The notes beneath the pieces were generated by a model that was not told the DNA's origin, searched no databases, and worked only from the letters and a program-made list of their open reading frames with translations. A program made the position numbers and the translations under genes. Below are positions 54,346 through 63,839 of a DNA stretch of 64,000 nucleotides, in pieces (the stretch's first letter is position 1; the number at the start of each line of letters is the position of its first letter). Origin of the DNA: Microbacteriaceae bacterium (lineage in GTDB: Bacteria; Actinomycetota; Actinomycetes; Actinomycetales; Microbacteriaceae); the NCBI GenBank assembly GCA_025464975.1, contig JAODMT010000005.1:1-64000 (forward strand), given 5' to 3'.

Positions 54346-54399
54346 GAGGCGCAAGTCTAATCGTCGCCTCCGACGCTGGCTGCTGCGATGATCAGAGCC

Positions 54400-55281
54400 A
54401 TGAGTGCCCTCCTCGCGTTTCTCGGATCGCTCGTCTATGGCGCGAGCGACTTCTTCGGCGGTCTCGCGGCCGGCCGAATGAGTTCGATCAGGGTCACCGC
54501 GATCAACTCCGTCGCCGGGGTTCTGCTGTTGTCCGTCGCATCCTGGTTCATACCCGGCCGGTGGAGCGTCGGCTCCGTGGTCTTCGGCGGGCTCGCTGGT
54601 GCGGCTGGGGCCGTTGCCCTCGGTCTGCTGTACGCGTGCCTCGCGCTCGGGCCGATGAGCATCCTTGCGCCGATCATGGCCCTCGTCTCGGCGATCGTTC
54701 CGATCGGGGTGGGGTTCGCCGCCGGCGAGCGCCTGACCGCGATCGGCTATCTCGGGCTGCTGGGCGGCCTGACCGCGGTCATCCTTATCTGTCTCGTGCC
54801 GGGAGCCCGCACGGTGCGGCCGGGCCGGCGCGGCATCCTGATGGCGGTAGGCGCGGGCATCGCGGTGGGCCTCTACCTCGTCTTCATAAACCTGACCCCC
54901 GGTGACAGCGGCATCTCGCCGCTGATCGTCACCTTCGCCGTGGCCGGCCTCGCCACGGGCGCGATCCTGCTCGGCCAGTTGTTCGTACGACGGATGACTC
55001 GCCGCCAGGCACCGCCGAGTCTGGCGCTGTCCGGCACGGCGGCGTTGCGCTCACCGGCCGCCCTCGCCGTCTACTCGGGACTCACGGATGCGGGCGCCTG
55101 CGTGCTCTTCCTCGTCGCCCTCCGCATCGGTGACCTTTCGGTGGTCTCCGTGTTGAACGCCCTGTCCCCGGCCGGCACGATCCTGCTCGCCGCGCTCGTG
55201 CTCAAGGAGCGGATCGCGCCCGTGCAGTGGATCGGTCTGGCGCTTGCCCTCTGCGCAGCCGCCATGCTCGCGGTGGCGTAG
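54400..55281 (+). CDS. EamA/DMT-family transporter
   Basis: A 293-residue membrane protein of two repeated EamA halves with about ten helices. The first half opens [23 protein letters not shown] and the second has [35 protein letters not shown], the usual pore-helix pair. Such permeases export or import metabolites; nothing fixes the substrate. ATG 54400 gives the common MSALLAF start; ATG 54388 is possible. Divergent from recQ, convergent with kynU. Confidence 0.85.
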
Positions 55282-55314: not shown

Positions 55315-56541
55315 TCATCGACCGGCCAGCAGCTCCCGCACTGCTTCGACCCCGGCCTGGAGTTCAGCAAAGCTGGTGGTCAGCGGGGACAGTCCGAGCC
55401 TCAGGCCGTCCGGCGAGCGAAAGTCGGGTATGACGCCGCGCTCCCAGAGCGCGGCCGTGACCTCGCGAAACCGGGGGTGGCGCAGCGTGACATGGCTGCC
55501 CCGTCTGGCGGCGTCCCGCGGGGAGGCGATGGTCACGCCGTGCTCGGCGAGCAGGTCATCCGCGAGCTCGATGGCGAACTCGGTGAGCGCCACAGACTTG
55601 GCACGGATTTGCTCCATTCCCGCCTCGGCCACGAGCGCGATCATGTCCTGCATCGCGAGCATGCCGACGACGGCTGGCGTGCCACTGAGGAAGCGACGAA
55701 TGCCATCGGCCGGAGCGTACTGAGGACCCATCTCGAACGGGGCGCTGCTGCCGATCCACCCCCAGATCGGCTGGGTGAGGGTGGGCTGCAACTCGGATCG
55801 AACATACCCGAACGCCGGGGCGCCCGGTCCCCCGTTGAGGTACTTGTACGAGCATCCGGCGGCTAGATCGACCGCCCAGTCATCGAGCTGAATGTCGGTC
55901 ACGCCGACCGAATGGCAGAGGTCCCACAGCACGAGCGCCCCGGCGTCGTGCGCAATGCGCGTGATTTCCGGCACGTCGGCGAGGAACCCGGAGCGATAGG
56001 CAACCTGGCTGAGCACCACGATGGCGGTCTGCGGGCCCACCGCGGCGGCGACCTGTTCCGGCGTGACGCCGGACGCGGTGTCCGCGTCGATCCAACGCAG
56101 GGTTCTGCCGGTCTCTGCGGCGATGCCCTGCAGCACGTAGCGGTCGGTCGGGAAGTTGTCGGTGTCCACCACGATCTCGGTTCGCTCCGGGCGGGCATCA
56201 ACCGCCGCGCGTAGCAGCTTGTACAGGATGACGGTGGTCGAGTCGCCGACGAATACCTGCCCGGCGTCCGCCCCAAGGGCCGCGCGCCCGAGGGCATCGC
56301 CGATGCTCAGCGGCAGCCGCATCCACTCCTCATCCCACCCGCGGATCAGGCGACCGCCCCACTGCTCGGTGACGAAGCGAGTGATTCGGTCTGCGCTGGC
56401 CCTGGTCGGCCTCCCGAGCGAATTGCCGTCGAGGTAGGCGACTACCTCGCTGTCGTCGGTTCCGACGAAGAGCTCGCGGTAACCGGCAAGCGGGTCGGCC
56501 CCGTCGAGGGCGGCGGCGCGAGCCGCGAGGGTGTCGGTCAC
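55315..56541 (-). CDS. kynU: Kynureninase
   Basis: A PLP enzyme of 408 residues that splits kynurenine into anthranilate and alanine. The family pieces YLDGNSLGRP, FVGDSTTVILYKLLRAA, WDLCHSVGV and the PLP-lysine loop CSYKYLNGGPGAPAF are all visible. GTG 56541 follows GGAGGAG by seven bases and overlaps the amidohydrolase stop (GTGA), so the three kyn genes are coupled. Third gene of the operon after kynA. Confidence 0.93.
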   Translation of the reverse strand: MTDTLAARAAALDGADPLAGYRELFVGTDDSEVVAYLDGNSLGRPTRASADRITRFVTEQWGGRLIRGWDEEWMRLPLSIGDALGRAALGADAGQVFVGDSTTVILYKLLRAAVDARPERTEIVVDTDNFPTDRYVLQGIAAETGRTLRWIDADTASGVTPEQVAAAVGPQTAIVVLSQVAYRSGFLADVPEITRIAHDAGALVLWDLCHSVGVTDIQLDDWAVDLAAGCSYKYLNGGPGAPAFGYVRSELQPTLTQPIWGWIGSSAPFEMGPQYAPADGIRRFLSGTPAVVGMLAMQDMIALVAEAGMEQIRAKSVALTEFAIELADDLLAEHGVTIASPRDAARRGSHVTLRHPRFREVTAALWERGVIPDFRSPDGLRLGLSPLTTSFAELQAGVEAVRELLAGR

Positions 56542-57566
56542 GAGAGAGTCTCCTCCAGGTCGGATGTGCCGAGAACGAATGACGTGGCAAGCCAGGCGGC
56601 GAGGTCGTCCCGGTCGGTCGGCAGGCCGGGTGCGTAGGAAAACCGCGGCCCGAAGTCGGACGACGGCTCGGGCGTGATTGCCCGTACCAGGTCGACCGTA
56701 CACTCGGCGAGCGCGCCAAGTTCCCGCGGGTTGATTCCCGCGGGGAGCGCGCCGTTGCCGAGGTCGGTGCCGTAACGGACGTCTCCGCCGAGCAGGGCGA
56801 AGCGGCGAACGTTGTCCATGGCGGCTTCGGCGTTCGATCCGCCGCGATGGATGTCGAGCGTGCTCACCCAGGACATACGCCCAGCCATGGCTGAGAGCAG
56901 CGAGTCGGGGAGTGCCTCGCTGAACGGCGCGTGCGCGAGACGGTCGACGCCGGCGTCGAACGCCCGCCGCGTCTGTCCCGGCCCCTCCGCGTGGGCGACG
57001 GCGGTTACTCCGCGGGCGTGGGCCGCGGTCACGATCGCCCGGAGGGTGTCATCGTCGAGCACCGGGCCCGCGACGGAATTGAGGGCAATCTTCACGAAGC
57101 TGGCGCCGGCGCCGCGTTGCGCGGCGACGGCATCCACGGCCTGCTGCGGCGACCCGATTTCGACGACCGACCCGCCCGGCGCCCAACTCCGGTCCGATGG
57201 GTACCCGCCCGGCGCCCAACTCCGGTCCGATGGGTACCCGCCCGGTGCGGTGAGAAATGCTCCCGCGAACCGGATGGCGGGCATTCCCGGTATGCGGGAC
57301 CAGTCCCGCGCGACATCAGGGATCCACCCGAGGTCATCGACCGCCGCGATACCGGCGCCCGGCAGCTTGGTGCCGTCGATCAGGCCGAGGTGCACGTGGG
57401 AGTCAGTGAAACCGCCGAACACGGTGCCCGCCATGGTCTGCGCGGGGCCGGCACCGCGGGGCGCGAGCACGAGCGAGCCGCTCGAGGCATCGAAAGTCGT
57501 CGGCCCGAGCCACGATCCGAGCCAGCACTCCGCAAATCTCACCAGCTTCTGGGGTCCCACCGGCAT
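56538..57566 (-). CDS. Amidohydrolase-superfamily protein in the kyn operon
   Basis: A 342-residue metal-dependent hydrolase. The metal motif is DSHVHLGL, further ligands are likely in VAHAEG, DRLAHAPF and YGTDLGNG, the order of amidohydrolase barrels of the imidazolonepropionase type. A perfect internal duplication adds a second GYPSDRSWAPG unit near residues 120-140. It lies between kynA and kynU with overlaps on both sides (TGATG and GTGA). The pathway step missing there is removal of formate from N-formylkynurenine, normally done by unrelated KynB or serine-hydrolase enzymes. A formamidase role is inference. Confidence 0.8.
   Translation of the reverse strand: MPVGPQKLVRFAECWLGSWLGPTTFDASSGSLVLAPRGAGPAQTMAGTVFGGFTDSHVHLGLIDGTKLPGAGIAAVDDLGWIPDVARDWSRIPGMPAIRFAGAFLTAPGGYPSDRSWAPGGYPSDRSWAPGGSVVEIGSPQQAVDAVAAQRGAGASFVKIALNSVAGPVLDDDTLRAIVTAAHARGVTAVAHAEGPGQTRRAFDAGVDRLAHAPFSEALPDSLLSAMAGRMSWVSTLDIHRGGSNAEAAMDNVRRFALLGGDVRYGTDLGNGALPAGINPRELGALAECTVDLVRAITPEPSSDFGPRFSYAPGLPTDRDDLAAWLATSFVLGTSDLEETLS
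57171..57250 (-). repeat. 33-base tandem duplication in the amidohydrolase gene
   Basis: Units 57171-57203 and 57204-57236 are identical, and a partial third runs to 57250. In frame, they duplicate eleven residues (GYPSDRSWAPG). Identity of the copies points to a recent event or a slippage site. Confidence 0.85.
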
Positions 57567-58405
57567 CAGCGAATCTCGGTTCGCACCGCAAACAGTTCGG
57601 GAAAGAAGGTGGTTTCGAGCGCCTTCTGCAGGAAGCCGACTCCACTTGATCCACCGGTACCGGTCTTCATCCCGATGGTGCGCAACACGGTCTTCATGTG
57701 GCGGAACCGCCAGAGCTGGAAGTTGTCCTCGAGGTCGACGAGTTCCTCGCACGCCTCATAGGCCCGCCAATTGTCTGCCGCGTTCTCGTAGATGCCGGTG
57801 AAGACCGGGACGAGTTCGGGCACGAATGCCCAGGCCTCCGTGACATCGCGCTCGAGCACCGAGCTCGGGATGGCGAACCCGGCTCGACTCAGATAGCGAA
57901 GAAACTCGTCGTAGATGCTCGGCTCGAGCACGAGAGCTGACAGCAACTCGTGGGCGGCCGGGTCGGACTCGAAGACCGGCAGCATTCGGGGATTCTTGTT
58001 GCCGAGCAAGAACTCGACGGCGCGGTATTGGGAGGACTGGAAACCGGATGAGTTGCCGAGGTAGCCGCGGAATTCCGAATACTCGGTCGGGGTCAGGGTC
58101 GCAAGCACCGACCACTGCTCGGTAAGGGTCCGCTGGATGTGCTTCACCCGCGCAATTCGCTTGAGGGCAAGCGGCAGGTTGTCCGCCCGCAGCAGATCGC
58201 GCGCGGAACGGAGCTCGTGAAGCACGAGTTTGAGCCAGAGTTCCGTGGTCTGGTGCTGGATGATGAAGAGAAGTTCGTCGTGATGCTCCGGCTCGCTCAG
58301 CGGCGCCTGCGCCGAGAGCAAGGTATCCAGCCGCAGGTAGGCACCGTAGCTCATCGTTTCGCTGAAATGGGTGACGAGCCCGTCGTCGAGGGGGCGCTCA
58401 CTCAT
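57566..58405 (-). CDS. kynA: Tryptophan 2,3-dioxygenase
   Basis: A 279-residue heme dioxygenase that opens tryptophan to N-formylkynurenine. The opening [29 protein letters not shown] with the active-site His, [19 protein letters not shown], and the C-terminal [21 protein letters not shown] (heme ligand His and tail) mark the family. ATG 58405 follows AAGG. First gene of the operon, divergent from a LysR regulator. Confidence 0.95.
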
Positions 58406-58517
58406 GGCTTGCCTTTCGTCACACTCCCGTGACGGCCGCCACGAACATCTCATGAAAGTAGCAGAGGCGCCTCGCCCATCTGCCCGCCGCGCAAGTCAAT
58501 CACGACCCACTGATCGC

Positions 58518-58529: not shown

Positions 58530-59459
58530 ATGGAACTTCGCCAACTCGAGCATTTCGTCGCCGTCGCCGAGGAACGCCACTTCACCAGGGCTGCCGACCT
58601 TTTGCAGATCTCCCAGTCCGGGCTCTCGGCATCCATCCGGTCCCTCGAGCTTGAACTCGGAACATCGCTCTTTATTCGCAGCACCCGACGCGTGGAACTC
58701 ACCGCGGCCGGGCAGGCCCTGCTCGCCGATTCCATACGCACCCTCGCGAGCGCCGCTGCCGCCCAGAACGCCGTCGCCGCCGTGCGCGGCCTCGTGCGCG
58801 GAACCCTCACCGTCGGCGCGGAACCCTGCCTCGGATCCGTGGATCTGCCCGCCGAACTCGGCAGGTTCCGGGTCGCCAACCAGGGCGTTGAGGTTCGCCT
58901 GCGTTACGCCGGTTCCCTCGAGATCATGGAGAGCGTTGCGAGTGGAAAAACGGATGTCGCCCTGGTCGTCACGACCGGCGCGACGGCACCCGGCGTTCAG
59001 ATCCGCCCGTTCCACCGGCAGAAGCTCGTTGTGCTGTGTCATCCGGACCACCGATTCGCCGGAAGGAGCGAGGTAGACCTCGAGTCGCTCCACGAGGAAT
59101 CCCTGATCGGCTTCCAGCCCGGCTGGGGCGCCCAGGTGCTGGCACGCCGCGCGTTCGCGGCCGCCGGGCTCGACTACCGGGCGGCCATGGAGGTCAACGA
59201 TGTGCATCCGCTGCTCGACCTCGTCGGGTTCAACCTCGGAGTCGCGATTGTGCCGGAGAGCTTCGCACAGAAGCGCCCGGACGAATTGTGTTCGATCGCG
59301 CTGCCTTCCGGTACCCCGGAATGGACGGCGGTCGTGGCTGCGGCGGCGGAGCCAAGCCCCGCCGCCGCAGCGTTCCTCGCCCAACTGGCGAGGAGTTCGA
59401 ATCAGGCCGCGTCGAGCGTGGCCAGCTCTTCCGGCGACAGCGTGACATCCGCCGCCTGA
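58530..59459 (+). CDS. LysR-family transcriptional regulator
   Basis: A 309-residue LysR protein. The DNA-binding head MELRQLEHFVAVAEERHFTRAADLL with QSGLSASIRSLELELGTSLF is classical, followed by a type 2 periplasmic-binding-like sensor. It is divergent from kynA with 124 bases between starts, so it probably controls tryptophan catabolism, sensing kynurenine or a relative. Its last 58 bases overlap the convergent aldo/keto reductase gene. Confidence 0.9.
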   Translation: MELRQLEHFVAVAEERHFTRAADLLQISQSGLSASIRSLELELGTSLFIRSTRRVELTAAGQALLADSIRTLASAAAAQNAVAAVRGLVRGTLTVGAEPCLGSVDLPAELGRFRVANQGVEVRLRYAGSLEIMESVASGKTDVALVVTTGATAPGVQIRPFHRQKLVVLCHPDHRFAGRSEVDLESLHEESLIGFQPGWGAQVLARRAFAAAGLDYRAAMEVNDVHPLLDLVGFNLGVAIVPESFAQKRPDELCSIALPSGTPEWTAVVAAAAEPSPAAAAFLAQLARSSNQAASSVASSSGDSVTSAA

Positions 59460-61594: not shown

Positions 61595-63553
61595 CTACAG
61601 CGCCGCGAGTTCTTCGATCACGCGGTCGCCGGGGGCGGCCACGACGATGGACGCGTCGATCTCGGCACGGCCGAGCAACTCGTCCATCCGGCGACGACGC
61701 GACTTGGAAATCAGCGTGACGACGGTCCCGACCTTGCCGGCACGGCCCGTGCGGCCCGAGCGGTGGAGGTACGTCTTGTACTCGTCCGGTGCGTCGGCCT
61801 GGATCACGAGGCTGATGTCATCGACGTGGATTCCGCGGGCTGCGACATCCGTGGCGACGAGTACGTTGACCCGACCGCTCGTAAGCAGCTGGAGGTTGCG
61901 CGTGCGGCGGGACTGATTGAGGTCACCGTGCAACGAAGTGGCCGGAATTCCGGCATCCTCGAGCTGGTCGGCAAGCTGCTCGGCGAAGGCACGGGTGCGG
62001 GCGAAGATCAGCGTCTTTCCCTCGCCGCCCGCGAGCTCCTCGATGATGCGGGTCTTGTCGCGCTGCTCAATGAGCAGAACACGGTGGTCGATCGTGGACG
62101 AAGCCTGATCTTCACCGGCAACCTCGTGAACCGACGGGTCCTTGAGGAACTGCTTGACGAGGGTGGCAACACCCTTGTCAAGAGTCGCCGAGAACAGGAG
62201 CTTCTGGCCGCCCTGCTTCGTTTCCTCGAGGATGCGCTGAACCGGCTCGAGGAAGCCGAGGTCGCACATGTGGTCGGCCTCGTCGAGCACGGTCACGAAG
62301 ACCTCGCTCAGGTCGAGACGACCCTGCTCGATGAGATCCTCGACGCGACCCGGGGTGGCGATGACGATGTCAACGCCACGCTGAAGCGTGGAAACCTGCT
62401 TGTACTGCGGCACGCCACCGACGATGGTCGTGGTGAACAGGCCGACGCTACGGGCAATCGGCTGCACGGTGCGGTCGATCTGCATGGCGAGCTCGCGGGT
62501 CGGGGCCAGAATGAGCGCGCGAGGCTTGCGGCCGGGCTTACGGCCGGCGCCTCCCATGTTCTCCATGAGGCGTTCGACCAGCGGTGCGCCAAAGGCGATG
62601 GTCTTGCCGGATCCGGTCTTTCCGCGACCGAGCACATCCTTGCCGGCGAGAACGTCGGGGATGGTCGCGGCCTGGATCGGGAACGGGGTCTCGGCACCCA
62701 TGGCAATGAGTTGACGAGTCATGTTGTCGCCGATGCCGAGGTCGCCCCAGGTCTTGCCCTCGGCGTCACCAGCGGTGATCACCTTGGCTTCAAGACGCTC
62801 GAGCACGACGTCGTCGTGCGGCTGGAAGCCGGCGGAGTGCCCGGTGCGCTCTGCGTCGTTTCCGAACGCGCGCTTGGCCGGGTAGAAATCGCTGTCGCGG
62901 CGCGGGGCGCGATCCTCGAAGGATCGGGCCGGACGGTCGTTGTACGACGGACGCTCCGTGCGAGCCGGACGGTCGTTATACGCCGGACGTTCCGTACGAG
63001 CCGGACGATCCCCATACGCCGGACGGTCGGTGCGAGCCGGGCGATCGTTATACGCCGGACGCTCCGTACGAGCCGGGCGATCGTTATACGCCGGACGCTC
63101 CGTACGAGCCGGACGGTCGTTATACGCCGGACGCTCCGTACGAGCCGGACGGTCGTTATACGCCGGACGTTCCGTGCGAGCCGGACGGTCGTTATACGCC
63201 GGACGCTCGGTGCGATCGCCGTAGGACGGACGCTCGGTGCGCTGCGGACGGTCACCATAGGACGGACGCTCAGTGCGCTGCGGACGGTCACCATAGGACG
63301 GACGAGCCGGGCGCTCGTTGGTCGGGGTCCAATTAGGGCGACGGTCGCCGGATGCCGGGCGGTCGGTCCCGGACGGACGGTCGCCGGTGCGGGCGGCGCG
63401 GTCATCCTGCGTCCAGCGCTTCTTCACCGGTGCGGCATCCCCGTGGAATCCACGGTGACCTTCGCTGCGGCTTCCCGGGCTCTTGGCCCCGCCGGTCGAG
63501 TTGTACTTCTTGACGGGACGGCCCGAGGCCGCCTTCTTGTCGAATGTAGGCAT
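61595..63553 (-). CDS. DEAD-box RNA helicase with N-terminal 12-residue repeats
   Basis: A helicase of 652 residues. The core (about 250-640) has the Q motif TPFPIQAATIPDVL, motif I GKTGSGKTIAF, Ia APTRELAMQ, motif II LDEADHM, motif III FSATL, and motif VI HRSGRTGRAG. The first 230 residues are a charged, disordered-looking tail of ERPAYNDRPART-type units. Such tails bind RNA and can drive condensate formation. The helicase would remodel RNA, often in the cold. ATG 63553 gives the short basic MPTFDKKA start. Confidence 0.92.
   Translation of the reverse strand: MPTFDKKAASGRPVKKYNSTGGAKSPGSRSEGHRGFHGDAAPVKKRWTQDDRAARTGDRPSGTDRPASGDRRPNWTPTNERPARPSYGDRPQRTERPSYGDRPQRTERPSYGDRTERPAYNDRPARTERPAYNDRPARTERPAYNDRPARTERPAYNDRPARTERPAYNDRPARTDRPAYGDRPARTERPAYNDRPARTERPSYNDRPARSFEDRAPRRDSDFYPAKRAFGNDAERTGHSAGFQPHDDVVLERLEAKVITAGDAEGKTWGDLGIGDNMTRQLIAMGAETPFPIQAATIPDVLAGKDVLGRGKTGSGKTIAFGAPLVERLMENMGGAGRKPGRKPRALILAPTRELAMQIDRTVQPIARSVGLFTTTIVGGVPQYKQVSTLQRGVDIVIATPGRVEDLIEQGRLDLSEVFVTVLDEADHMCDLGFLEPVQRILEETKQGGQKLLFSATLDKGVATLVKQFLKDPSVHEVAGEDQASSTIDHRVLLIEQRDKTRIIEELAGGEGKTLIFARTRAFAEQLADQLEDAGIPATSLHGDLNQSRRTRNLQLLTSGRVNVLVATDVAARGIHVDDISLVIQADAPDEYKTYLHRSGRTGRAGKVGTVVTLISKSRRRRMDELLGRAEIDASIVVAAPGDRVIEELAAL
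62925..63310 (-). repeat. 36-base tandem repeats in the helicase N-terminal coding region
   Basis: About ten units of 36 bases encode the repeated RPARTERPAYND cycle. Central units are almost identical at the DNA level, the outer ones diverge (PSYGDRPQRTER). The array is coding and has no unique spacers. Confidence 0.9.
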
Positions 63554-63839
63554 GGTTCTTTTCCGGGTTGTGTTTAGTTGCATGGCAGCGCGCAACCAAC
63601 AAGCAGCGCTTCTGCTGGAACCCGGGCGATCTTTGGCCAGGACCGTTCACATACGTGATTTTTCCCACGTATTCCAAGGAGTAGTTGGAGGAGGGAAACC
63701 GGCCCACAAGACTTACAAACCCATTCGCGAGATTTCGCGATGTCTAGAGCCGACTGCATTACAGTACCGGATGGTCCGGCAAATGGCTACTGGACCGGCC
63801 CGGGCGGCGCGGCGCGGGTCGCGACCGTCGGATGAGGCG
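63554..63839. other. Upstream region of the helicase gene, no gene seen
   Basis: This 286-base stretch between the helicase start and the NUDIX stop has no supported frame. A long untranslated leader is usual for cold-inducible helicases, but no specific structure is evident by eye. Confidence 0.4.

What the first reader, a model, noticed from the sequence alone, without database searches (positions are those of the whole stretch)
56538..57566. Amidohydrolase replacing the formamidase in a kynurenine operon
Seen: kynA, this gene and kynU overlap as one coupled unit. Known: between TDO and kynureninase a kynurenine formamidase is needed, and KynB (cyclase-like) or alpha/beta-hydrolases are the described types. 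This protein has amidohydrolase-superfamily metal motifs (HVH, HAE, D in YGTD). Inference: a non-orthologous N-formylkynurenine formamidase, or an enzyme for an unknown side reaction.
Basis: partly seen in the sequence, partly recalled or inferred. Interest (0 to 1): 0.65.

Follow-up and report, generated by a model that had tools for sequence, protein, structure and literature searches.

The report
Metal amidohydrolase inside kynurenine operon
A gene wedged between the first and third steps of bacterial tryptophan breakdown encodes a metal-type amide-cutting enzyme that probably does the middle step, a job so far credited to two unrelated enzyme families; no enzyme test has been done.

Summary
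Window 56538-57566 (minus strand) encodes a 342-aa protein, "X", between kynA (tryptophan 2,3-dioxygenase, TDO) and kynU (kynureninase), with overlaps of 1 and 4 nt. X is a conserved family: 79 copies form one clade (100/99). kynU is next to X in 101 of 102 loci with room, kynA in 85 of 104. The six ligands of a binuclear amidohydrolase site are kept in 102 of 104 copies; the other two are broken genes. A confident model (pLDDT 94.8) matches the prolidase / arginine carboxypeptidase / ochratoxinase branch.

Best reading: X hydrolyses N-formylkynurenine, in place of KynB or an alpha/beta-hydrolase formamidase. X-less kyn regions often carry an alpha/beta hydrolase (11 of 38); X loci hardly ever (1 of 73). 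Activity is inferred only. Lack of kynB is weak support: KynB is rare across these Actinobacteria.

Against: 12 of 13 X genomes tested without a local kynA lack TDO altogether; a sister family without kyn linkage shares X's conserved residues; two strains keep kynA and kynU with a broken X; many kyn clusters have no linked formamidase. The window copy carries a unique 11-residue duplication in a conserved loop.

The parts
56538..57566 (-). X: binuclear-type amidohydrolase, 342 aa (stop codon included), candidate N-formylkynurenine formamidase
57566..58453 (-). kynA, tryptophan 2,3-dioxygenase; likely start at about 58405 (ATGAGT after GAAAGG)
   Evidence: TIGR03036 392.3 bits, PF03301; start judged from the sequence
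55315..56541 (-). kynU, kynureninase, GTG start overlapping the X stop by 4 nt, 408 aa
   Evidence: TIGR01814 244.4 bits (cut-off 246.4), PF22580; junction
57170..57245 (-). 33-bp tandem duplication (2.3 copies) that repeats APGGYPSDRSW, residues 107-117 and 118-128 of X; seen in 1 of 104 X copies
58530..59459 (+). divergent LysR-type regulator; no relative at E<=1e-10 in any of 80 X-locus flanks, so not part of the system
54388..55281 (+). EamA-type transporter, convergent with kynU; a relative lies in 6 of 80 X-locus flanks

Best explanation
X is a metal-dependent amidohydrolase that converts N-formylkynurenine to kynurenine and formate. TDO makes N-formylkynurenine; in X two divalent metals held by H57, H59, H192, H212 and D268 and bridged by a carboxylated K159 activate water, which attacks the formyl amide; kynurenine passes to KynU, whose gene overlaps that of X. 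Shown here: operon structure, conservation, metal-ligand set, predicted fold, kyn linkage. Inferred: metal binding, lysine carboxylation, substrate, product. It would be a non-orthologous replacement of KynB (cyclase-like fold) and of the alpha/beta-hydrolase formamidases.
For: Linkage: kynU beside X in 23 of 23 (order sample), 77 of 78 (named) and 1 of 1 (G468) loci with room, kynA in 22 of 24 and 63 of 80 (three named copies duplicate order-sample ones). Co-occurrence: 22 of 24 X genomes have TDO against 75 of 273 others (Fisher 5e-10, kinship not corrected), 16 of 16 against 0 of 7 in the window's family. Metal site complete in 102 of 104. Fold: VIA-align Z 30.5 to Zn arginine carboxypeptidase 3be7, 28.9 to ochratoxin hydrolase ADH3, 26.9 to phenylurea hydrolase B, an N-aryl urea cutter (its chemistry is recalled). 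Slot exclusion: alpha/beta hydrolase in 11 of 38 X-less kynA regions but 1 of 73 X loci (Fisher 2.3e-5). No KynB over cut-off in 24 X genomes or in ten more, one of them with a broken X.
Against: No biochemistry. 12 of 13 X genomes tested that lack a local kynA have no TDO. X is broken in 2 of 104 copies while kynA and kynU still match over their length. The sister family, with no kyn gene found within about 1.5 kb, shares Y122, P123, W128, Y265, G270 and N271, so these do not mark kynurenine specificity. 27 of 38 X-less kynA regions have no linked alpha/beta hydrolase. The two hydrolase queries came from two of the 11 positive regions, the 38 regions were picked by hand, and six of the 11 are one genus, so that p-value overstates. 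One locus, L129, has kynA-X with no kynU in the next 6 kb. Nearest solved folds cut peptide-type amides. Four X genomes also carry a 137-140-bit KynB-like cyclase away from kyn genes.
Confidence: 0.58

Rival explanations
1. X releases kynurenine (or N-formylkynurenine) from another conjugate, such as a kynurenine-containing dipeptide or an N-alpha-acyl kynurenine, and so feeds KynU. TDO would be one source among several.
For: Nearest folds are carboxypeptidases and prolidases; X-kynU survives without TDO in 12 of 13 genomes tested; kynA beside X changes at least 7 times on the X tree (two of its 12 kynA-less rows, L174 and L206, have TDO elsewhere).
Against: 85 of 104 X copies sit directly after TDO, and the near-exclusion with the alpha/beta hydrolase points to the formamidase step.
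Confidence: 0.19
2. X acts after KynU: KynU takes N-formylkynurenine directly and X deformylates the N-formylanthranilate.
For: X stays with kynU even without TDO; same bond chemistry.
Against: Where both are present X lies between kynA and kynU; it needs a KynU that prefers the formylated substrate, for which nothing here speaks; L129 has X with kynA and no kynU nearby.
Confidence: 0.08
3. X does an unrelated side reaction, and the true formamidase is an unlinked hydrolase.
For: 14 of 38 X-less regions have kynA and kynU with no alpha/beta hydrolase found nearby, so unlinked enzymes must often suffice; two strains have lost X.
Against: Tight linkage over several families in a single clade.
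Confidence: 0.15

Closest known systems
Bacterial kynurenine formamidase KynB (TIGR03035, PF04199 cyclase-like; structures 4cob, 4co9, 4cog)
   Same: Proposed reaction; metal-activated water; place in a kyn operon
   Different: Unrelated sequence and fold; X has no PF04199 or TIGR03035 match. PMC4243253 (passages) says KynB matches no known amidase or amidohydrolase and has a different fold from the amidohydrolase superfamily.
Alpha/beta-hydrolase arylformamidase (eukaryotic KFase type; relatives beside kyn genes in other Actinobacteria)
   Same: Proposed reaction; extra gene of a kyn cluster (L046, L047, L057, L060, L062, L063, L194, L195, L230-L235)
   Different: PF07859/PF20434 fold in the two proteins scanned, not an amidohydrolase; that these are formamidases is inferred
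Zn arginine/lysine carboxypeptidases and Xaa-Pro dipeptidases of the amidohydrolase superfamily (3be7, 3mtw, 2qs8)
   Same: Fold (Z about 30) and the metal-ligand stretches
   Different: About 20% identity; most X copies are shorter (window 342 aa against about 400); kyn context; NF051886 match far under cut-off (36.9 of 500 bits)
Ochratoxin hydrolases ADH3/LlADH and ochratoxinase (8ihq, 9l6p, 4c5y)
   Same: Among the best profile matches in the PDB and same fold
   Different: The GGYP..W loop of X stands where they have GGHAD; different substrate expected
ACMSD (amidohydrolase of the 3-hydroxyanthranilate branch)
   Same: Amidohydrolase superfamily (cited in PMC13151070, one reference seen), kynurenine pathway
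   Different: Window X gave no PF04909 match at E<=1 and 4 of 23 members only weak ones; best profiles and folds are of the prolidase branch

Membership tests
Amidohydrolase superfamily, binuclear prolidase/carboxypeptidase branch | HxH, bridging Lys, two His and Asp metal ligands | tested here: met
   102 of 104 copies keep all six; the other two are broken; the stretches align with those of ADH3 and relatives. That these are the ligands there is recalled.
Amidohydrolase superfamily, binuclear prolidase/carboxypeptidase branch | Fold of solved members | tested here: met
   Model pLDDT 94.8; Z 28.9-30.5 to 3be7, 2qs8, 3mtw and 8ihq over 306-315 residues, rmsd 2.9
Amidohydrolase superfamily, binuclear prolidase/carboxypeptidase branch | Over a curated family cut-off | tested here: not met
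   Window X is under cut-off for PF01979 (15.2 of 25), PF07969 (16.2 of 29.7) and NF051886 (36.9 of 500); 19 of 23 members match PF01979 at E<=1, best 2.3e-8
KynB (TIGR03035) | Match to the family model | tested here: not met
   No match at E<=0.001
Kynurenine formamidase by activity (EC 3.5.1.9) | Hydrolysis of N-formylkynurenine | not testable with these tools
   No assay possible
Kynurenine formamidase by activity (EC 3.5.1.9) | Genomic tie to TDO and kynureninase | tested here: met
   exceptions
Kynurenine formamidase by activity (EC 3.5.1.9) | No other formamidase in the same genomes | tested here: inconclusive
   No KynB over cut-off, though that cut-off also misses the kynU-linked G033 protein (214.9 of 223 bits); no relative of one alpha/beta hydrolase in the window's genome (no positive control); other serine hydrolases not surveyed
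ACMSD | Amidohydro_2 (PF04909) match | tested here: not met
   Window X no match at E<=1; 4 of 23 members weak, best 2.4e-4

The most novel reading that the evidence does not exclude
X-kynU is a self-standing salvage module for N-formylkynurenine made outside the cell, for example by light or oxidants acting on tryptophan in proteins, in some lineages joined to TDO; and the unlinked sister family with the same conserved residues, found in nine genomes of the class sample that all have TDO, is the same formamidase working from elsewhere in the genome.
Probability: 0.17. Interest if true: 0.7.

Novelty: new variant of a known kind. Interest (0 to 1): 0.52.

Why it matters
The second step of tryptophan breakdown is noted as the exception in a conserved pathway, carried out by two non-orthologous enzymes (PMC4243253 and PMC4217691, passages). 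A further solution from the amidohydrolase superfamily would fill the gap in Actinobacteria that have TDO and kynureninase but no recognised KynB. One search counted 478 stretches that encode relatives at E<=1e-3, of which I examined the best 80. One enzyme and one assay would settle it.

Tried and rejected
ACMSD (recalled as the known amidohydrolase of this pathway) was my first idea; profile and fold point to the prolidase branch instead.

KynB elsewhere in the window's genome: three PF04199 proteins on contig C17, best TIGR03035 score 51.5 of 223 bits, in frames of 308-383 aa with other neighbours: not KynB by these measures.

Compensation in broken-X strains: the cyclases of G227 (89.5 bits) and G566 (84.1) looked like replacements, but G567 (92.2) and G569 (88.1), Cryobacterium with intact X, have them too, and G568 has none. 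No signal.

A conserved regulator: no LysR relative at E<=1e-10 in the flanks of 80 named X operons. Promoter and terminator scans found nothing.

IDO as a substitute for TDO: no match in 14 genomes, but the control genomes were silent too, so this shows nothing.

Literature: searches listed no paper on an amidohydrolase-superfamily N-formylkynurenine formamidase. I saw passages of PMC4243253, PMC13151070, PMC5341072 and PMC4217691; all else as search listings. Subscription papers, among them the Streptomyces coelicolor kyn paper in the reference list of PMC4243253, were not available.

Rows dropped: L029 (broken) from A1; from A2 also L160 (broken), rows at 85% identity or more to a kept row, and seven further non-redundant rows left out by hand (L128, L143, L146, L148, L149, L169, L171). 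One search puts all 104 back. L018 has no start codon near the match and was begun at the match start.

Full report
WHAT IS THERE. X occupies 56538-57566 on the minus strand (342 aa). Upstream is kynA (TIGR03036 392.3 bits over its 390.7 cut-off), downstream kynU (TIGR01814 244.4 bits, just under 246.4; PF22580 KYNU_C matched). The kynA stop and X start share one base; the X stop and the GTG start of kynU share four, with GGAGGAG ahead of it. A LysR gene is divergent from kynA and an EamA transporter converges on kynU; at E<=1e-10 relatives of these lie in 0 and 6 of 80 other X-locus flanks, so neither is part of the system.

A CONSERVED, KYN-BOUND FAMILY. In 297 genomes of the order, X gave matches in 30; 24 are strong (E 6e-26 or better, the window's own included) and six are weaker (best E 8.5e-16 to 1.6e-12) and fall outside X in the tree. 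Of the 24 loci, 23 have kynU next to X and one (L008) ends there; 22 have kynA. A scan of the named genome collection found 478 relatives and kept 80. Of these, 60 are kynA-X-kynU, 17 X-kynU and 3 kynA-X; two of the last three (L099, L170) end just after X, but the third, L129, a metagenome-assembled Actinomycetota contig, has 6 kb more and no kynU in it. So kynU is beside X in 77 of 78 named loci with room and kynA in 63 of 80. One more, G468 from the class sample, is X-kynU with TDO on another contig. In all: kynU 101 of 102 loci with room; kynA 85 of 104 (G468 not counted). Three named copies duplicate order-sample ones. Named hosts include Cryobacterium, Leifsonia, Microbacterium, Frigoribacterium, Salinibacterium, Cellulosimicrobium, Oerskovia, Isoptericola, Rhodococcus and Nocardia. 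In a tree of 79 X and 20 outgroup proteins X is one clade with 100/99 support.

CO-OCCURRENCE. TDO is in 97 of 297 genomes of the order. 22 of 24 X genomes have it, 75 of 273 others do; in the window's own family 16 of 16 against 0 of 7; outside that family 6 of 8 against 75 of 266 (Fisher 5e-10, 4e-6 and 0.009). Related genomes are not independent, so these p-values overstate.

THE ENZYME. Across 79 copies the invariant residues include H57, H59, K159, H192, H212 and D268; across all 104 copies each is kept except in two broken genes. HMMER aligns these stretches with those of ADH3 and relatives; that they bind the metals there is recalled. The AlphaFold2 model (79 rows, pLDDT 94.8, pTM 0.93) matches Zn arginine carboxypeptidase 3be7 (Z 30.5, 315 residues, 2.9 A), Xaa-Pro dipeptidase 2qs8 (29.9), 3mtw (29.8), ADH3 8ihq (28.9), ochratoxinase (28.6) and phenylurea hydrolase B (26.9) (Foldseek). 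So X is a binuclear-type amidohydrolase by predicted fold and ligands, though the window copy is under every curated family cut-off tried. Metal, lysine carboxylation and substrate are inferred. I had no model coordinates, so pocket geometry was not measured.

WHY FORMAMIDASE. The step between TDO and KynU is deformylation (established; PMC4243253 passages). In X-less relatives the kyn cluster often holds an alpha/beta hydrolase: 11 of 38 regions of 9-10 kb around kynA (18, 20) against 1 of 73 X loci with flanks of about 13 kb, the one being a weak partial match 0.6 kb upstream of kynA in L155 (E 2.7e-6; Fisher 2.3e-5). Limits of this test: the two hydrolase queries come from two of the 11 positive regions, I picked the 38 regions by hand, and six of the 11 are one genus. 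In a second set, 30 kynA-centred loci with 1.5-kb flanks, 7 have X, 6 others have a hydrolase, none has both. Two of the hydrolases match PF07859 and PF20434; that they are formamidases is inferred from place and from the HGG motif (recalled). One genome, G033, has a KynB-like protein (214.9 bits, cut-off 223) next to kynU. So the slot is held by X, by an alpha/beta hydrolase, by KynB, or by nothing found: 14 of 38 X-less regions have kynA and kynU only, and 13 of 38 kynA alone.

KYNB ABSENCE IS WEAK EVIDENCE. No X genome passes the KynB cut-off: 0 of 24 in the order sample, 0 of 10 named, one with a broken X; window genome 51.5 of 223 bits. But neither does any of 297 genomes of the order or 296 of the class, although 97 and 181 have TDO, and the cut-off itself narrowly misses the kynU-linked G033 protein. 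Four X genomes (G065, G107, G135, G177) carry 137-140-bit cyclases beside a creatininase-like frame (label from my reading of the sequence), not beside kyn genes.

RESULTS THAT CUT ACROSS. (1) TDO-less X. 17 of 80 named loci and 2 of 24 in the order sample lack kynA beside X. I searched 13 of these 19 genomes with PF03301: 12 have no TDO; Nocardia transvalensis has it elsewhere. On the tree kynA beside X changes at least 7 times, with 12 of 79 rows scored as lacking it, two of which (that Nocardia and G468) have TDO elsewhere. If X is the formamidase, the TDO-less strains must meet N-formylkynurenine from outside. (2) Broken X. In G227 one metal histidine is changed and the C-terminal half is largely gone; Frigoribacterium CG_9.8 (L160) has an in-frame stop; both keep long matches to kynA and kynU. 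X is dispensable there. (3) Sister family. Nine amidohydrolases of the class sample, with no kyn gene found within about 1.5 kb and five of them beside a dnaE-like frame (my reading of the sequence), share Y122, P123, W128, S235, Y265, G270, N271 and the ligands with X. All nine genomes have TDO, against 172 of 287 others (Fisher 0.014). They may do the same job unlinked, or the shared residues may not speak for kynurenine at all.

THE WINDOW COPY. A 33-bp tandem duplication at 57170-57245 repeats APGGYPSDRSW, the loop with invariant Y122, P123 and W128; model confidence falls to about 61 at residues 111-120. None of the other 103 copies has it. The frame is kept and a full second copy of the loop remains, so the enzyme may work, but tests should start from another copy.

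VERDICT. Observation confirmed; interpretation plausible at about 0.58. It is a new family of a known superfamily, probably serving a known step. Ten searches of an open-access library listed no paper describing it (see Tried and rejected), which does not exclude subscription papers.

Noticed in passing
57170-57245: Unique in-frame 33-bp tandem duplication inside X, in the conserved GGYP..W loop; 1 of 104 copies has it.
   Followed up: partly
L208-L216 (G389, G445, G454, G436, G427, G323, G328, G345, G305): Sister amidohydrolase family with the same conserved residues, no kyn gene found within about 1.5 kb; all nine genomes have TDO.
   Followed up: partly
L120, L137, L139, L140, L148, L154, L165, L166, L167, L171, G065, G177: X-kynU pairs in 12 genomes without any TDO match.
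   Followed up: partly
L029 (G227) and L160 (G566): Broken X copies between kynA and kynU that still match over their length.
   Followed up: partly
L129:112-7149: kynA-X without kynU in the next 6 kb, the one exception to kynU linkage among loci with room.
   Followed up: partly
L021 and L025: kynU (L021) and both kynA and kynU (L025) match in two pieces in different frames, so these may be frameshifted genes or sequencing errors.
   Followed up: no
61595-63595, minus strand: DEAD-box-like helicase frame (name from reading) with roughly ten tandem RPAYNDRPARTE-type repeats near its N-terminus.
   Followed up: no
L047, L057, L060, L062, L063, L230-L235: kynA/kynU clusters with a further gene for an alpha/beta hydrolase, likely the local formamidase.
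   Followed up: partly
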